Source of the DNA: Corallococcus sp. EGB
GTDB taxonomy: Bacteria; Myxococcota; Myxococcia; Myxococcales; Myxococcaceae
Length of the DNA stretch: 64,000 nt
Direction of reading: 5' to 3'
NCBI RefSeq assembly: GCF_019968905.1
Contig: NZ_CP079946.1
Location: 4,898,001 to 4,962,000, forward strand
Of the stretch, positions 57,201 to 64,000 are shown one piece after another. The position numbers and the translations under genes are program-made. The notes under the pieces are model-generated. The model was given only the letters and a program-made list of their open reading frames with translations. It made no database searches and was not told the DNA's origin. How positions within the stretch are numbered: position 1 is the first letter of the stretch; each line of letters opens with the position of its first letter.

Positions 57201-57356
57201 CCCCGCCTCCTCGCGCCAGGACTGGTTGGAACGCGGGAATCACCGCGAAGCCCTCAACCGGGCTCCTAAACTTGACGGCCCCGCCTGCCTGCCCGGCCTA
57301 CAGGGATGTATCCCTGCATCGTCCCGGAGCGCCTTGTGCCATGCTGCGTGCGCCCC

Positions 57357-58682
57357 GTGGATTCCTCCTTGCTCAGATTCGGGTCCCTGGTCCTCGCCGG
57401 ACTCCTCGCCCCGGGCGCGTTCGCGGCCGAACCGACGCGCGAGGAGTTGGTGCGCGCGGAGCTGGAACGCCAGCTGCGCGACATGGTCCCCGAGTCCCCC
57501 TCGGAAGTGCAGGTGCTCTTCGCGGGCTTCAAACCGGAGGACGGCTACCGGCTCGTGGAGACCGACTTCCTCCTGGATGGCGAACCGCTCGCCGTCCCGT
57601 CGCTGGAGGAGCTCAACGCGCCCGGCGTCCACCGGCTCGCGAACCTCAAGGTCGAACCCGGCGAGCACACGCTCGTCTCGCGCGTCACGTACACCAACGG
57701 CTCCTGGAGCCTGTTCAGCGAGACCAACGGCTTCCTCTGGAAGATCACCGCCTCCGTCGGCTTCCAGACCCAGCGCGGCCTGCGCGTGGTGGTGAAGGCG
57801 TCCCCCAGCGTCGTGCCCAACGCGCCGGATCCGCGCCTCAAGCTCAAGCTCTCCCACTCCGTCACCGCGGAGATGATCCAGCCGCTGAAGGACGAGCCCG
57901 CCGTCGTCGCCGCCCCCCCGCCCGTGAAGCCGGCCCCGGTGGATGCGGGCGCCCCGGTGCACGTCGCCCAGCCCGCGGCGGTGCCGGATGCGGGCGTGAA
58001 GCCCCAGACGACCGTCGTCTCCGTGACGCCGCCCGTGGAGCGCCCGCCGGTGGCGCCCAGCCGGCTGCGCCTTCAGGTGACGTCGAAGAAGCCCACCTCC
58101 GCCACCGCCTTCGTGCGCGGCCCGGGCGAGCCCATGAAGCTCACGGTCCCCACCGCCAAGGGCCGCAAGCCGCAGGACGTGGTGCTGACCGCGGGCGCGT
58201 ACACCGTGGACCTCATCGCTGACGGCTTCCTCGCGCAGACGCGACAGGTGGAGCTGACCGCCGGCGCGGATGCGTCGCTGGCCTTCACGCTGGTGCCCGC
58301 GCCCAAGGCCGCGAAGGCCGCGAAGGTGCAGGAGGGCCGCATCGAGCTGCCCGAGCCCCTGAGCTTCGAGGAGAAGAAGCCCGTGCCCACCAAGGCCACG
58401 CTGTCCGGCCTGGACCTGGCGGTGGACCTGCTCGTGCGCGACCCCAAGGCCCGCCTGCGCGTCGAGGGCCACACCGACGCGCGCGAGGTCCCCGAGCCCG
58501 CCCGTCAGAGCCTCTCCGACGCCCGCGCCCGCGCCGTGGCCGACATGCTGATCCGCGCGGGCGTGGCCCCGTCCCGGGTGGAGGCCGTGGGCCTGGGCGA
58601 CCGCAACCCCAAGGCCCCCAACCTGATTCCGCGAGGCCGCGAGCTCAACCGCCGCGTGGAGCTGGTGCTGCTGCGGCCCTGA
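57357..58682 (+). CDS. OmpA-domain secreted protein
   Basis: About 441-residue protein starting GTG at 57357 with a signal peptide (LLRFGSLVLAGLLAPGAFAA) and cleavage near Ala-Ala-Glu. The central part contains Pro/Ala/Val-rich low complexity (about 175-250). The C-terminal ~130 residues carry OmpA-like peptidoglycan-binding signatures: LRVEGHTDAREVPEPARQSLSDARARAVADML and VEAVGLGDRNPKAPNLIPRGRELNRRVEL (GHTD, then LS..RA..V, and NRRVE). It should attach the outer membrane or periplasmic machinery to peptidoglycan. An in-frame ATG at 57306 is an alternative start. No motility or T6SS gene is adjacent. Confidence 0.8.
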   Translation: MDSSLLRFGSLVLAGLLAPGAFAAEPTREELVRAELERQLRDMVPESPSEVQVLFAGFKPEDGYRLVETDFLLDGEPLAVPSLEELNAPGVHRLANLKVEPGEHTLVSRVTYTNGSWSLFSETNGFLWKITASVGFQTQRGLRVVVKASPSVVPNAPDPRLKLKLSHSVTAEMIQPLKDEPAVVAAPPPVKPAPVDAGAPVHVAQPAAVPDAGVKPQTTVVSVTPPVERPPVAPSRLRLQVTSKKPTSATAFVRGPGEPMKLTVPTAKGRKPQDVVLTAGAYTVDLIADGFLAQTRQVELTAGADASLAFTLVPAPKAAKAAKVQEGRIELPEPLSFEEKKPVPTKATLSGLDLAVDLLVRDPKARLRVEGHTDAREVPEPARQSLSDARARAVADMLIRAGVAPSRVEAVGLGDRNPKAPNLIPRGRELNRRVELVLLRP

Positions 58683-58746: not shown

Positions 58747-60102
58747 ATGCCTCGCTACGAGTTCACGGAAGGCAGCTCCAGCAAGTTCTGGGAGATCACC
58801 CTGGAAGGCACCACGCTCACCAAGCGCTGGGGCCGCATCGGCACCGACGGCCAGGAGAAGGTCGAGGAGTTCGACTCCAAGGCCGAGGCCAGGAAAGCCT
58901 ACGACGCGCAGGTCCGTGAGAAGGAGCGCAAGGGCTACACGCTCGCTGAAGGCGGGGACAGCGACGGCGAAGAGGCCACCGCCGAGTCCGCCGTCCACCC
59001 GGACCTGGAGGCCGCCATCCTCGCGAAGCCCGACGACGTGAAGGGCTATCTCGCGTATGCCGATTGGCTCCAGGGGGAAGGCGACCCTCGCGCCGAGCTC
59101 ATCCGGCTCCAGCACTCCGCAATGGACGTTCCCGCCGACAAGGCCGCGGCCACTCGCAAGAAGGTGGCGAAGTTCATCGAGGAGCACGCGGGTGAGTTCC
59201 TGGGCGAGTCGCTGGCGGAGGCCGTCTCCGACCGGACCCTCAAGCTGGAGTGGCACCTGGGCTACATCCGCGAGGCCCGCCTGGGTCAGGTGGACTACGA
59301 CTCCACGGCGGACATCCCGGAGCTGCTGGCCGAGCTGCTGGCCCATCCGTCCGCGCGGTTCCTCAGCCGTCTGACACTGGGCATGGCCAGCTTCGACGGC
59401 GAGAACGATTACGACGACACGCTGGGCGTGCTCGCGAAGGCGAAGCCCGCGCCGCCGCTGCGCTCGCTGTTCATCGGCGACTTCGAGTTCCCCGATGAGA
59501 CGGAGATCTCCTGGACGCAGGTGGGCGACCTCCAGCCGCTCTACAAGGTCTATCCCCAGCTCCAGGAGCTGCGTGTACGCGGCGGTGAAATCGGGTTCGG
59601 GAAGATCGACCTGCCGGAGCTGCGCTCGTTCACCGTGGAGACAGGTGGGCTTCACGAGGGCGCGGTGAAGGAAATCGCGAAGGCGAAGTGGCCGAAGCTG
59701 GAGTCGCTGGAGGTCTGGTTCGGACAGGAGAACTACGGCGCGGGCGGCGGAGTGAAGGAGCTCAAGCCCCTGCTCGACGCGGTGGGCGTGCCGGCCCTGC
59801 GCAAGCTGGGGCTGCGCAACGCCGAGTTCACCGACGCGCTGTGCGCGGCGCTGCCCCAGTCGAAGATCCTCGCCCAGCTTGAAGAGCTGGATCTGTCCAT
59901 GGGCACGATGAGCGACGCGGGCGCGGAGACGCTGGCGGCGAACGCCAAGGCCTTCCAGCACCTCAAGGCGCTCGACGTCACCCAGAACTTCCTCACGAAG
60001 GCGGGGCAGAAGGCCGTGGCCTCCGTGGCCAGGACCGTCGCAAGTGGCAACCAGCGCGAGCCCTACGACGAGGAGTCGCGCTACGCCGCCGTGGGCGAGT
60101 AA
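58747..60102 (+). CDS. STM4015-like leucine-rich protein with WGR and TIGR02996 domains
   Basis: 451-residue protein. Residues 1-75 are a WGR domain (KFWEITLEGTTLTKRWGRIG), followed by a TIGR02996-like segment at about 95-125 (ILAKPDDVKGYLAYADWLQG, DPRAELIRLQ). The C-terminal part (about 190-430) is a leucine-rich-repeat-like region with LRKLGLRNAEFTDAL and LEELDLSMGTMSDAG, which resembles the STM4015 family. WGR domains occur in MolR/YehI and PARP-type proteins and are thought to bind nucleic acid or partners; function of STM4015 is not established. ATG start. It precedes by 9 bp an ATP-grasp-like gene (STM4014-like), so both are one operon. The N-terminal fusion may be specific to myxobacteria. 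Confidence 0.75.
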   Translation: MPRYEFTEGSSSKFWEITLEGTTLTKRWGRIGTDGQEKVEEFDSKAEARKAYDAQVREKERKGYTLAEGGDSDGEEATAESAVHPDLEAAILAKPDDVKGYLAYADWLQGEGDPRAELIRLQHSAMDVPADKAAATRKKVAKFIEEHAGEFLGESLAEAVSDRTLKLEWHLGYIREARLGQVDYDSTADIPELLAELLAHPSARFLSRLTLGMASFDGENDYDDTLGVLAKAKPAPPLRSLFIGDFEFPDETEISWTQVGDLQPLYKVYPQLQELRVRGGEIGFGKIDLPELRSFTVETGGLHEGAVKEIAKAKWPKLESLEVWFGQENYGAGGGVKELKPLLDAVGVPALRKLGLRNAEFTDALCAALPQSKILAQLEELDLSMGTMSDAGAETLAANAKAFQHLKALDVTQNFLTKAGQKAVASVARTVASGNQREPYDEESRYAAVGE

Positions 60103-60111
60103 CCCGTCACC

Positions 60112-61245
60112 GTGCCGCCGTTCCTGACCATCGGAAACCCCGGGAACCGGCGCGTCACGCTCTTCCAGGAGGCGCTTGTCCGCGCCGGGCTGCCACCCGC
60201 GCAAGTGGTGGCGTGGGAGACCGTGGCCCGCACGCCCGACGTCCTCCTGGAGCTGCCCGACACGGAGCGATTCGTGCGCATCGACGCGGCCGGGGAGGAC
60301 GCGGCCGTGGAGCGCGCCTTCCTCCAGCGAGGTTACGCGGATGCGCTCGGCGCGGGCTGCGACGTCGTGACGCCCGACCACCTGGAGGCGCTGCCGGATG
60401 AACACGGCCGCGTGCTGTGTCCGCGGCAGCACCACCTGGGCTTCCTGCGCGTGCTGGAGGACCTGTCCGCGCGGTTCGCGCAGCGCCCCCGTTGGCGCGT
60501 GCTGTCCTCGCCGGGCGCCATCGCGGACCTGTTCGACAAGCGCATCACGTCGCGCCGGTACGCGTCCCTGGGAATCCCCGTGCCGCCGTTCCTGGACGTG
60601 GCCCCGGGCGCCACACCGGAGACGCTGCGCCACGCCCTGCGGGAAGCCGGCTTCCGCGAGGCGTTCGTGAAGCTGTCCTGCGGCTCATCCGCGTCGTGCC
60701 TCGCCATGTACCGGCCGGGCCGGACGGAAGGGGACGCGGGCTCGCTGCTCACCAGCCTGCACCGGGGCGCCACCGGCTGGTTCAACTCCCTCAAGGTGCG
60801 ACGCGCAACGGACGCGCGGGAGGTGGACGCGGTGCTGTCCTTCCTCCTGCGGGAGGGCTCGCAGGTGGAGGAGTCCCGGCCGAAGGCCCGGCTGGGCGGG
60901 GACCTGTTCGACTGCCGCATCCTCATGGTGCGCGGCGACCCCGCCTTCACCGTCGTGCGCCAGAGCCGCCTGCCCATCACCAACCTGCACCTGGGCGGCT
61001 ACCGGGGCGACCTGGACGCCTTCCACGCGGCGGTGCCCCCCCGCGAACTGGAGGCCGCGCTGGAGAGCTGCCGCGCCGTGGCCCGCGCGCATGACTGCCT
61101 CCACGTGGGCATCGACCTGATGTTCGAGGACTTCTTCCACGGCCACCGCGTGCTGGAGGCGAACGCCTTCGGGGACCTGCTCCCCGGCCTCACGCGCGAC
61201 GGCCTGTCCGTCTACGACTGGGAGATCCGCGAAGCACTGCGCTGA
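60112..61245 (+). CDS. STM4014-family (ATP-grasp-like) protein
   Basis: 377-residue protein, GTG start. The N-terminal part resembles a pre-ATP-grasp Rossmann domain (PPFLTIGNPGNRRVTLFQEALV). The core has ATP-grasp-like features: FDKRITSRRYASLGIPVPPF, EAFVKLSCGSSASCLAMY, and the C-terminal metal-binding pattern FEDFFHGHRVLEANAFGDLLPG. ATP-grasp enzymes ligate a carboxylate to an amine or thiol through an acyl-phosphate; here the substrate is not known. By sequence and context it matches STM4014, encoded in Salmonella beside radical SAM proteins STM4011-4012 and hydrolase STM4013. Its 3' end overlaps STM4011-like gene (opposite strand) by 34 bp. Confidence 0.75.
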   Translation: MPPFLTIGNPGNRRVTLFQEALVRAGLPPAQVVAWETVARTPDVLLELPDTERFVRIDAAGEDAAVERAFLQRGYADALGAGCDVVTPDHLEALPDEHGRVLCPRQHHLGFLRVLEDLSARFAQRPRWRVLSSPGAIADLFDKRITSRRYASLGIPVPPFLDVAPGATPETLRHALREAGFREAFVKLSCGSSASCLAMYRPGRTEGDAGSLLTSLHRGATGWFNSLKVRRATDAREVDAVLSFLLREGSQVEESRPKARLGGDLFDCRILMVRGDPAFTVVRQSRLPITNLHLGGYRGDLDAFHAAVPPRELEAALESCRAVARAHDCLHVGIDLMFEDFFHGHRVLEANAFGDLLPGLTRDGLSVYDWEIREALR

Positions 61246-62111
61246 GCGCCGCCCGTCCACAGCCGGGTCGCCGGCACGCGCTCCAGCAGCCCGGACCCGA
61301 AGACGCGATCCAGTTCCAGGTACTCCAGGTGCACGTAGCCGATGTGGCACCCGCACGTGTCCTTCGAGCACGGGCGCGGCTTCAACGCCGCGTCGAAGTC
61401 CGGCGCGTAGAGGTTCCCCAGCGGCTCCTTGATGAAGTGGCACCGGTACGCGGTGCCGTCACCGTCCACGGACAGCACGGACTCGCCGCCCCGGCACGCG
61501 CGGCCCCGGCTGGGGTGGCGCGTGTTGTTCACCGGGAAGAGCGGGTCGATGCGGGTGAAGCGCTCCACGTCCTCGGCCGTGTACGCATCCAGGCCGTCCT
61601 TCACGGCGTTGATCCACAGGTACGTGTCCTCGGGCAGCTCGCGGCGCAGGGCCTCCGCCTCGTCCGCGAAGCGCCGGAAGCCCACCATGCCAGCGCTGTG
61701 CCGCACGCCGTGCTCCGACAGCCGCTGGCACTGCGCGAGGAAGCGCGACCGCTTCATCCACTCCGGATGGTACGTGGCCCAGATGCCCAGCTTCTCCGCG
61801 CGACAATCCTCCAGCCAGTCCAGCCGACAGGAGAGGTTCGTCTGCACCACCGCGCGCTCCACGTGGGGCAGGTGCGTCAGGCGCGCCAGGGCCTGCTGAT
61901 ACCAGGGCCAGATGAGCGCCTCGCCCCACGGCGTGAAGAACACGGACACGGTGTCCTGGGTGCGCGACTCCACCCAGTGGAGGAAGCGCTCCAGGTCCGC
62001 GCGGTCCTTCGTCAGCTCCTCCTCGCTCTGCTTCCACTTGCCGAAGGGGCAGTACTCGCAGCCGTAGTTGCAGCCGGACAGCGGGCCCCGATAGAGCACG
62101 GTGAGCTTCAT
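61212..62111 (-). CDS. STM4011-family radical SAM protein
   Basis: 299-residue radical SAM protein. The CxxxCxxC motif CNYGCEYC gives Cys14, Cys18 and Cys21 as ligands of the 4Fe-4S cluster that cleaves S-adenosylmethionine. A C-terminal Cys-rich part (RACRGGESVL, CHFI, CSKDTCGCHIGY) resembles an auxiliary-cluster or SPASM-like region. It overlaps the upstream gene by 4 nt (ATGA), with ATG at 62111 chosen for that and for the first codon of MKLTVLYRGPLSGC. By context it is STM4011-like, with STM4012 and STM4013 in the same operon. The reaction is unknown. Confidence 0.8.
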   Translation of the reverse strand: MKLTVLYRGPLSGCNYGCEYCPFGKWKQSEEELTKDRADLERFLHWVESRTQDTVSVFFTPWGEALIWPWYQQALARLTHLPHVERAVVQTNLSCRLDWLEDCRAEKLGIWATYHPEWMKRSRFLAQCQRLSEHGVRHSAGMVGFRRFADEAEALRRELPEDTYLWINAVKDGLDAYTAEDVERFTRIDPLFPVNNTRHPSRGRACRGGESVLSVDGDGTAYRCHFIKEPLGNLYAPDFDAALKPRPCSKDTCGCHIGYVHLEYLELDRVFGSGLLERVPATRLWTGGAQRSASRISQS

Positions 62112-63421
62112 CGCCAGGCGTACTCCGTCATGCGCGCGCGCACGGCCTCGGAGTCCAGCCACGGGCCAATCAGGTCCGAGCGCTCCACGCCCGCCGCCGT
62201 GAGCTGGAACACGCCGTCCACGTCGCGCGCCAGCCCGTGCGCCTCCAGCTCCGCGAGCATCGGGAAGTCCGCCATCGCCTCCGTGCCGAAGCGCTGGCGG
62301 TACACGCCCGCGTCCACGCCCTCGGCCAGCAGCGACAGCACCAGGTGCCGGTGGCGCTGCTCGGCCGCGTCCAGCACGAAGCCGTAGCGCACTTCACCGA
62401 AGGACGCCGCGTCCCGTTCGATGTACGCCTGGATGATGCCGCGCACCTCGCGCGAGGCCACCGCGTACTCGGACGAGTAGTGCACGGCCCCCGTATACGA
62501 GCGCGCCCCCACGCCCAGGCCCACCATGCCGTCCTCCTGGCAGCGGTACACCGCGCCTCGTGCGGCCGGCGCATGCGCCGCGCGGAACATCCGCATGGAC
62601 ACCTGCGTGTAGCCCCGCGACAGGAGGAAGTCCCGGCCGGCCCGGTAGAGCGACAGCCGCAGGTCGTCCCACGCGCGCGATTTCTTCCCCAGGAAGGTGA
62701 GGGGCCGCACGTAGAGAGGGTAGAGGTACAGCTCCTCCGGCGCGTACCGCAGCGCCGCCTCCAGCGAGTGGAGGAACGTCTCCACCGTCTGCCCCTCGAT
62801 GCCGTAGATGAGGTCCAGGTTGAGCGTGGGAAAGCCCGCGCTCCGCAGCAGGTCCAGCGTGGCCGCCACCTGCGCCGTCTTCTGCGGCCGCTTCACCGCG
62901 GCCACCTCCGACTCCAGGAAGCTCTGCACGCCCATGCTCACGCGGTCCACGCCCCGGGCCTTCAGCACCGCGACCTTGGCCGCGTCCACCGTCTCCGGAG
63001 ACACCTCCACGGACATGGGCACGTCGCGCGGGTCCACGCCCAGCTCCGCCGCCAGATCGAACACCGTCTCCAGCCCCGCGACCTCCAGCAAGGTGGGGGT
63101 ACCGCCGCCGATGGCGGCCCGCGCGAACGTGGCCGGGCCCAGCGCCTCCTTCACCCGGAGGGCCTCGCGCTTCAGCGCCCCCAGCCACGCCTGGACCACG
63201 TCCTCCTTCGGACCCGCGGCGGTGAAGAGGTTGCAGAACCCGCAGCGCATCTCGCAGAAGGGCACGTGCAGGTAGAGGAACAGCGCGTCCCGCCGCTCCT
63301 TCGCCCAGACATCCTCCAGCGGCAGCGCTGGGGTGAGCGGGCGGTAGGCCGTCTTGTGCGGGTAGCCGTAGAGGTACGCCACGTACGGCGTGCCTTCGAG
63401 CATCGACTCCAGGCGCGTCAT
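62108..63421 (-). CDS. STM4012-family (HemN/HemW-like) radical SAM protein
   Basis: 437-residue radical SAM protein with the CxxxCxxC motif CEMRCGFC (Cys56, Cys60, Cys63) after LFLYLHVPFC, the HemW/HemN-like order. Further HemN-type signatures are AIGGGTPTLLEVAGLETVF, VEVSPETVD and GVDRVSMGVQSF, with a C-terminal extension (HemN C-domain-like) at about 320-420. HemN-like proteins include oxygen-independent coproporphyrinogen oxidases, HemW haem chaperones and methyltransferases, so haem synthesis cannot be assumed. ATG 63421 overlaps STM4013-like gene by 4 nt. The operon runs 4013-4012-4011 leftward. Confidence 0.8.
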   Translation of the reverse strand: MTRLESMLEGTPYVAYLYGYPHKTAYRPLTPALPLEDVWAKERRDALFLYLHVPFCEMRCGFCNLFTAAGPKEDVVQAWLGALKREALRVKEALGPATFARAAIGGGTPTLLEVAGLETVFDLAAELGVDPRDVPMSVEVSPETVDAAKVAVLKARGVDRVSMGVQSFLESEVAAVKRPQKTAQVAATLDLLRSAGFPTLNLDLIYGIEGQTVETFLHSLEAALRYAPEELYLYPLYVRPLTFLGKKSRAWDDLRLSLYRAGRDFLLSRGYTQVSMRMFRAAHAPAARGAVYRCQEDGMVGLGVGARSYTGAVHYSSEYAVASREVRGIIQAYIERDAASFGEVRYGFVLDAAEQRHRHLVLSLLAEGVDAGVYRQRFGTEAMADFPMLAELEAHGLARDVDGVFQLTAAGVERSDLIGPWLDSEAVRARMTEYAWR

Positions 63422-64000
63422 GGCTCGGAGTCTACCGGCAGCACGAACTCGCCATAGGGCACCGTCCACACCACCGGGTGCCCCAGCCGGTGCCCCGAGT
63501 AGCCGTCCTCGCCATACGCCGTCCCGTGGTCCGAGCACACGATGCAGAACGCCGGGCCGCGCCGCCGCAGCGCCTGGAACAGGGGCGGCAGCTGGCGGTC
63601 CACGTAGGCCAGCGCCGCCGCGTGCGTCGCCTTCGAGTCCTCCGCCGCCCCGGGCACATGGTGCCGGTTGGGCTGGTGCAGCGCGGAGACGTTGATGAAG
63701 AGGAACACCCGCTGCTCCCGGGGCCGCGAGCCCAGGATCTTCACCGCGAGTGATACCTGATTTTCCGTGGATCGGGGGTCGGTGACGCCCAGCGAGGGGT
63801 CCCAGTGCGCCTCGGAGAAGAGGCCAGGGAGGACGCGGCCCAGGGGGTTCTTCTGGTTGAAGAACCCCGTCCCGCCAATGCACGCCGTGTGATAGCCGCG
63901 CCCGGCCAGGCCCGTGACGAGGTCCGGCGCGTCCAGCACGCAGGTGCCGGGGCCGGTCGTCTCGCTGCCTTCGAAGCGCAGGGCGAACGGGCGCGGGTGG
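63418..64000 (-). CDS. STM4013-family sulfatase/phosphatase-fold hydrolase (5' end outside window)
   Basis: Partial gene: the C-terminal ~194 residues are present and the reading frame stays open to the window end (HPRPFALRFEGSETTGPGTC). Residues near the end match the alkaline-phosphatase/sulfatase fold: FLFINVSALHQPNRHH, YVDRQLPPLFQAL and CSDHGTAYGEDGYSGHRLGH, the SDHG being the metal-binding histidine motif. By context this is STM4013-like, the hydrolase of the STM4011-4015 set. The catalytic Ser/Thr/Cys region is not in the window. Stop overlaps the STM4012-like start by 4 nt. Confidence 0.75.
   Translation of the reverse strand, partial: HPRPFALRFEGSETTGPGTCVLDAPDLVTGLAGRGYHTACIGGTGFFNQKNPLGRVLPGLFSEAHWDPSLGVTDPRSTENQVSLAVKILGSRPREQRVFLFINVSALHQPNRHHVPGAAEDSKATHAAALAYVDRQLPPLFQALRRRGPAFCIVCSDHGTAYGEDGYSGHRLGHPVVWTVPYGEFVLPVDSEP

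What the first reader, a model, noticed from the sequence alone, without database searches (positions are those of the whole stretch)
58747..64000. STM4011-STM4015-like five-gene set: undescribed pathway
Two radical SAM proteins, an ATP-grasp-like protein, an alkaline-phosphatase-fold hydrolase and a leucine-rich protein occur together here as two convergent operons and, as I recall, also in Salmonella and Actinobacteria under the locus names STM4011-STM4015. No product or phenotype is established that I know. Radical SAM plus ATP-grasp plus a hydrolase suggests synthesis or modification of a small molecule or peptide, with the leucine-rich protein possibly as sensor or scaffold.
Basis: partly seen in the sequence, partly recalled or inferred. 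Interest (0 to 1): 0.75.

Follow-up and report, generated by a model that had tools for sequence, protein, structure and literature searches.

The report
Tagged leucine-rich proteins and modifying enzymes
The five neighbouring genes are real and travel together across bacteria. The leucine-rich protein among them nearly always ends in the same short tail with a glutamate as its very last residue, which suggests that it is the object the other four enzymes chemically modify, a job nobody appears to have described.

Summary
The five genes are present. The last one runs 230 bases past the window (STM4013, 63418-64230). STM4011-4014 pass NCBI's profile cut-offs; the leucine-rich protein matches STM4015 to its end but below cut-off (234 of 275 bits). 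In 195 genomes of the phylum STM4011, 4012 and 4013 occur in the same 61, and STM4014 in 60 of those. Complete sets occur in nine phyla, often with several STM4015 copies.

New observation: 114 of 118 STM4015 proteins end exactly in glutamate, in a tail R-[YF]-x-[AST]-V-[GSA]-E after a variable acidic linker. No other open frame in the same loci (0 of 11,794) has it. Genomes carrying the enzymes also encode tail-bearing leucine-rich proteins elsewhere; homologues in genomes lacking them mostly lack the tail. STM4014's predicted fold is closest to ArgX/LysX/RimK, ATP-grasp ligases that join amino acids to the C-terminal glutamate of a protein.

Best reading: STM4015 is the substrate or carrier. 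STM4014 charges its terminal glutamate; the radical SAM enzymes STM4011 and STM4012 and the phosphodiesterase-like STM4013 process the attached group. The attached group, reaction order and final product are unknown. No paper in the searched library describes a function.

The parts
58747..60102 (+). STM4015-like protein: N-terminal WGR domain (58762-58947), TIGR02996 domain (58999-59118), leucine-rich repeat region (from about 59299) and C-terminal tail
   Evidence: AlphaFold2 model of leucine-rich fold, nearest solved structure 2RA8
60079..60102 (+). C-terminal tail RYAAVGE plus stop; proposed site of modification (terminal Glu), preceded by an acidic linker at about 60052-60078
   Evidence: only match of the tail pattern in the 9.43 Mb genome
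60112..61245 (+). STM4014, ATP-grasp ligase of ArgX/LysX/RimK-like fold with all catalytic residues
61212..62111 (-). STM4011, radical SAM protein (CX3CX2C) with five further invariant Cys, possibly auxiliary iron-sulphur cluster(s)
62108..63421 (-). STM4012, HemN-like radical SAM protein, related to HemN and the methyltransferase NocN
63418..64000 (-). STM4013, alkaline-phosphatase-superfamily enzyme with a threonine at the nucleophile position; gene continues to 64230, outside the window (L009 11418-12230)

Best explanation
The set is a protein-tail modification pathway. STM4015 proteins are leucine-rich scaffolds whose C-terminal tail (acidic linker followed by R-Y-x-A-V-G-E) is the substrate. 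STM4014, an ATP-grasp ligase, activates the carboxylate of the last glutamate as an acyl phosphate and joins an amine (most likely an amino acid or small metabolite) to it, as LysX/ArgX do on the carrier LysW and RimK does on ribosomal protein S6. The two radical SAM enzymes then remodel the attached group or the neighbouring tail residues: STM4011 through a peptide-type radical SAM centre with extra cysteines, STM4012 by HemN/NocN-like two-SAM chemistry. STM4013, a threonine-nucleophile phosphodiesterase-like enzyme, removes or transfers a phosphate-bearing part. As several tail-bearing scaffolds can be served by one enzyme set, and no protease or exporter gene was seen to travel with it, the product more likely stays on the protein than leaves as a free small molecule. 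Shown here: gene set, co-inheritance, tail conservation, link between tail and enzymes, folds and catalytic residues. Inferred: that the tail is modified, the site, the donor, the order of steps, and retention on the protein.
For: Tail: 114 of 118 STM4015 frames end in Glu exactly at the C-terminus; R at -7 in 111, Y or F at -6 in 107; 277 of 11,794 other frames end in Glu and none has the motif. Different codons encode the same tail residues, so the selection is on protein. The terminal Glu also holds where the rest of the motif drifts: Salmonella and E. coli (...MYTE...MFTE) and B. fragilis 2RA8 (...YPMITE). Link to enzymes: STM4015 relatives outside the operon carry the strict tail in 31 of 48 cases in operon-bearing genomes and 0 of 7 in genomes without it; by DNA pattern the tail is in 8 of 9 operon genomes and 2 of 15 others, one of these a non-LRR chance match. 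STM4014: sequence-profile relatives LysX and RimK; best structural matches ArgX with LysW Z 23.4, RimK 22.7, LysX 22.4. LysX links the amino group of alpha-aminoadipate to the gamma-carboxyl of the C-terminal Glu54 of LysW (PMC10433800; also PMC4490483). One to six STM4015 copies per locus, 11 hits in genome G068.
Against: No biochemical data. The structural lead of ArgX/RimK/LysX over glutathione synthetase (Z 21.1) and D-Ala-D-Ala ligase (20.5) is small, so the ATP-grasp could act on another carboxylate. The LysW-recognition motif GSWGR of LysX/ArgX (PMC10433800) is replaced by GSSAS. Two genomes without a detected operon (G015, G153) have a tail-like leucine-rich gene, though both assemblies are incomplete. 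The genome comparisons are not phylogenetically independent. Some STM4015 copies beside STM4014 lack the tail. The roles of STM4013 and the radical SAM enzymes are argued from family only.
Confidence: 0.55

Rival explanations
1. RiPP-like pathway: the leucine-rich domain is a giant leader, the last seven or so residues are the core peptide, modified by the radical SAM enzymes and ATP-grasp and then cut off and released as a small product.
For: Radical SAM plus ATP-grasp enzymes are typical of such pathways; several substrates served in trans by one enzyme set; the graspetide ligase PsnB is among the Foldseek matches.
Against: No protease or exporter recurs in the annotated neighbourhoods inspected; the tail lacks a conserved nucleophile for a graspetide ring; Tyr at -6 is not kept in Enterobacteria, Methylobacterium or some Rhodococcus, while the terminal Glu is; the core is uniform across paralogues, unlike a diversified library.
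Confidence: 0.2
2. LysW-like carrier pathway: the terminal Glu is only a handle; a small molecule is built on it by the enzymes and then released, STM4015 being recycled.
For: Same logic as LysW (terminal Glu, RimK/LysX-type ligase).
Against: No peptidase to release the product is part of the set; many paralogous carriers per genome (11 hits in G068) are hard to explain for a simple carrier.
Confidence: 0.12
3. Small-molecule pathway in which the leucine-rich protein is a sensor or scaffold and the tail is only a docking motif for the enzymes.
For: A docking motif would also be conserved and would also track the enzymes (inference).
Against: Docking motifs rarely need a fixed last residue; the Glu is the exact C-terminus in 114 of 118 cases, and the ATP-grasp fold is closest to enzymes that act on exactly such a residue.
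Confidence: 0.1

Closest known systems
LysW amino-group carrier protein with LysX/ArgX (lysine and arginine biosynthesis)
   Same: Protein with an invariant C-terminal Glu; ATP-grasp ligase of the same fold (3VPB Z 23.4, 3VPD Z 22.4); shared T-N segment after the conserved Arg
   Different: STM4015 is a leucine-rich protein, not a small zinc-binding protein ending EDWGE; STM4014 has GSSAS where LysX has GSWGR; the partners are radical SAM enzymes and a phosphodiesterase-like enzyme, not the lysine/arginine pathway enzymes
RimK / ribosomal protein S6 C-terminal glutamylation
   Same: ATP-grasp ligase acting on the C-terminal Glu of a protein; structural Z 22-23
   Different: RimK needs no radical SAM partners (own knowledge); here four enzymes are co-inherited
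NCBIfam cassette STM4011-STM4015
   Same: All five families, adjacent as in other loci
   Different: Here split into two convergent groups; STM4015 carries extra WGR and TIGR02996 domains and scores below NCBI's cut-off
HemN / class C radical SAM methyltransferases (NocN)
   Same: STM4012 matches HemN (1OLT, E 5e-56) and NocN (9P2U, E 1.5e-37)
   Different: Forms its own family; reaction unknown
2RA8, B. fragilis Q64V53
   Same: Solved WGR plus leucine-rich protein, profile E 1e-74, native end ...YPMITE
   Different: Only a sequence relationship was tested; partners in B. fragilis were not examined

Membership tests
STM4011-STM4014 families (NCBIfam) | Score over NCBI's curated cut-off | tested here: met
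   STM4011 407/200, STM4012 596.9/380, STM4013 420.8/250, STM4014 357.9/175 bits
STM4015 family (NCBIfam NF038076) | Score over curated cut-off 275 bits | tested here: not met
   234.2 bits; none of 195 phylum genomes passes. Described here as an STM4015 homologue, not filed as a formal member.
STM4015 family (NCBIfam NF038076) | Homology to the C-terminus, place beside STM4014, shared tail | tested here: met
   profile positions 13-290 of 290 matched
RimK/LysX/ArgX group of ATP-grasp ligases | ATP-grasp fold and catalytic residues (Lys, Asp/Arg, Glu-x-Asn metal site) | tested here: met
   K143, K187, D267, R269, D335, E349, N351 in all 60 sequences; fold
LysX/ArgX | GSWGR motif that recognises LysW | tested here: not met
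   GSSAS at the place following the conserved Lys (motif from PMC10433800)
LysW / amino-group carrier protein | Invariant C-terminal Glu | tested here: met
   114 of 118
LysW / amino-group carrier protein | Small Zn-binding protein ending in EDWGE | tested here: not met
   Leucine-rich protein of about 280-450 aa; tail RYxAVGE
Radical SAM superfamily | CX3CX2C cluster motif | tested here: met
   STM4011 C31, C35, C38; STM4012 C56, C60, C63 (L048 numbering), invariant
SPASM/twitch radical SAM proteins | C-terminal auxiliary cluster domain | tested here: inconclusive
   Five further invariant Cys in STM4011 (C223, C241, C265, C270, C272), but no SPASM match in Pfam
HemN-like / class C radical SAM methyltransferases | HemN-like core and C-terminal domain | tested here: met
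   HemN_C in Pfam, 1OLT and 9P2U matches
HemN-like / class C radical SAM methyltransferases | Methyl transfer or decarboxylation activity | not testable with these tools
   needs an enzyme assay
Nucleotide pyrophosphatase/phosphodiesterase-like, alkaline phosphatase superfamily | Thr nucleophile and metal ligands | tested here: inconclusive
   Invariant T57 aligns with the Thr region of NPP structures 7N1S and 2GSN; D234/H235 and H247/H251 invariant; metal binding not tested
RiPP precursor | Core peptide cleaved from a leader | not testable with these tools
   needs peptide mass spectrometry

The most novel reading that the evidence does not exclude
A previously undescribed protein modification: a widespread family of leucine-rich proteins carries a C-terminal tag that a four-enzyme set (ATP-grasp, two radical SAM enzymes, phosphodiesterase-like enzyme) turns into a covalently bound cofactor-like group, with one enzyme set serving many tagged proteins in a genome.
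Probability: 0.4. Interest if true: 0.88.

Novelty: new variant of a known kind. Interest (0 to 1): 0.77.

Why it matters
The five gene families have been named after Salmonella locus tags without a function. Knowing which protein is the likely substrate, and which single residue to watch, turns a vague 'unknown pathway' into a mass-spectrometry experiment. The set is in nine phyla, in Salmonella and in 154 of 5,426 complete E. coli genomes, so a new protein modification or bound cofactor would be of wide interest.

Tried and rejected
Separate short peptide gene in the cluster: no room (gap of 9 bases, otherwise overlaps). Tail on non-leucine-rich proteins: the own genome has only the one tail; in 24 other genomes the tail-bearing frames examined were leucine-rich, except one chance match in G071 and the short frame in L217, which did not reach the profile and is unresolved. 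Anti-phage defence: only weak partial matches in PADLOC. Virus-borne copies: no relative in IMG/VR; one 'phage' record looks like host DNA. Conservation of the last codons through gene overlap: rejected, because the tail holds where STM4014 does not follow. Sulfatase reading of STM4013 (formylglycine) not favoured: the position is Thr. Literature searches for the locus tags, family names and gene combination gave no functional paper. STM4011 found no sequence relative among solved structures.

Full report
WHAT IS THERE. The window lies in a 9.43 Mb single-contig genome; the nearest named relative of these proteins is Corallococcus interemptor (STM4013 96% identical; STM4011 97%). Open frames and profiles give: STM4015-like 58747-60102 (+), STM4014 60112-61245 (+), STM4011 61212-62111 (-), STM4012 62108-63421 (-), STM4013 63418-64230 (-), the last completed from the genome. 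Starts of STM4011 and STM4012 were set from the family alignments. The two groups converge and overlap by 34 bases. Neighbours are an OmpA-domain protein (57306-58682) and a protein without any family match (64299 onwards).

FAMILY MEMBERSHIP. STM4011-4014 exceed NCBI's cut-offs; STM4015 scores 234 of 275 bits with a match to its end. It bears a WGR and a TIGR02996 domain in front of the leucine-rich part.

CO-INHERITANCE. In 195 genomes of the phylum, STM4013, STM4011 and STM4012 are each found in 61 genomes, the same 61; STM4014 passes its cut-off in 60 of them, the missing one being a 78% complete assembly. STM4015 is in those 61 and six more. Loci from Myxococcota, Planctomycetota, Cyanobacteriota, Chloroflexota, Actinomycetota, Acidobacteriota, Deinococcota, Bacillota and Pseudomonadota were collected. 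Of 89 loci, 67 hold all five genes, most in the order 15-14-13-12-11; many of the others are cut by contig ends. A tree of STM4012 follows phyla in part, with Actinomycetota and Cyanobacteriota each as one group. E. coli has the set in 154 of 5,426 complete genomes.

THE TAIL. STM4015 proteins from these loci differ in length and sequence but share their end. Of 118 complete frames 114 end in Glu; position -7 is Arg in 111, -6 Tyr or Phe in 107, -3 Val or Leu in 105. Among 11,794 other frames of the same loci 277 end in Glu and none has the motif. In an alignment of 69 STM4015 sequences the terminal Glu is one of five invariant columns; the four exceptions were left out of that alignment, so the fair figure is 114 of 118. 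Among 171 distinct genes found by a pattern that fixes Arg and Glu, both residues use varied codons, and the 13 residues before the motif are 37% Asp or Glu. Enterobacteria and Bacteroides keep little more than the final Thr-Glu (...MYTE...MFTE...MITE). In the AlphaFold2 model the last residues have lower confidence (block means 76 and 58) than the C-terminal repeats (93-99).

TAIL AND ENZYMES GO TOGETHER. Fifty-five STM4015 relatives lying outside the operon were fetched. In genomes with the operon 31 of 48 carry the strict tail; in genomes without it 0 of 7 do (Fisher p 0.002, or 0.016 counting a further tail-bearing gene found in G153). A DNA pattern for the tail with a true stop codon is present in 8 of 9 operon genomes and 2 of 15 others (p 0.0005). 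These genomes are related, so the p-values are guides only. In the window's own genome the tail occurs once.

STM4014. Sixty sequences keep the ATP-grasp residues and an invariant P-x-T-N-L-x-L segment. A profile finds LysX and RimK among solved structures. The model (pLDDT 94.9) matches ArgX bound to LysW (Z 23.4, rmsd 2.6, 267 residues), RimK (22.7) and LysX (22.4) first, then glutathione synthetase (21.1) and D-Ala-D-Ala ligases (20.5). Rows within 1 Z unit are tied; the lead of the group is consistent but modest. LysX joins an amino group to the gamma-carboxyl of LysW's C-terminal Glu, and replacing that Glu by Ala in a haloarchaeal homologue makes the cell an arginine auxotroph (PMC10433800; PMC4490483).

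THE OTHER ENZYMES. STM4011 has CX3CX2C and five further invariant Cys, suggesting auxiliary cluster(s), but no SPASM match in Pfam. STM4012 is HemN-like, closest to HemN and the methyltransferase NocN. STM4013 resembles nucleotide pyrophosphatases/phosphodiesterases; its invariant Thr57 falls at the nucleophile region. Their roles are inferred from family only.

INTERPRETATION. A residue fixed at the exact C-terminus, in a tail of a protein that is co-inherited with an ATP-grasp ligase whose nearest structural relatives act on C-terminal Glu, is best explained as the ligation site. That enzyme-bearing genomes may encode about ten tagged proteins argues for a modification that stays on the protein, though release of a product is not excluded.

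LIMITS. No experiment has been done on the reaction; donor, product and order are unknown. The STM4015 profile was built from tail-bearing seeds, but it also recovers tail-less relatives, so it does not depend on the tail. Neighbourhoods were inspected for proteases and exporters only through the annotated records, not systematically in all loci.

Noticed in passing
L040, L041, L042, L046 and many of L062-L127; absent from the window's genome: A DUF6745 protein (PF20530) and an unnamed protein of about 100 aa (start RxGDVLI, end QREYxP...D) stand beside 36 of 67 complete STM4011-15 loci.
   Followed up: partly
L044 11766-12500; L222 7339-8037: In Salmonella and E. coli a Cof-type HAD hydrolase overlaps the end of STM4011, as if a sixth operon gene.
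   Followed up: no
G068 contigs listed: One genome of the same family has eleven STM4015-like matches scattered over contigs, most with the tail.
   Followed up: partly
L010-L013, L053 12151-13611: Some STM4015 paralogues beside STM4014 have lost the tail.
   Followed up: no
L223 2501-3348: In one E. coli the STM4015 gene is annotated as frameshifted while the four enzyme genes are annotated without a defect.
   Followed up: no
L052 (BNCN01000003.1): 'Comamonas sp. KCTC 72670' groups inside Myxococcus; the record is probably mislabelled or contaminated.
   Followed up: no
L047 (OR850900.1): A record named Salmonella phage S.Kent 1-2-1 holds STM4014-4011 and looks like host DNA.
   Followed up: no
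PDB 2RA8: A solved, uncharacterised WGR plus leucine-rich protein of Bacteroides fragilis is a STM4015 relative with the terminal Glu.
   Followed up: partly
G091:C68, G092:C1:7716023, G126:C80, G132:C9: More distant second STM4012-like genes occur in a few genomes.
   Followed up: no
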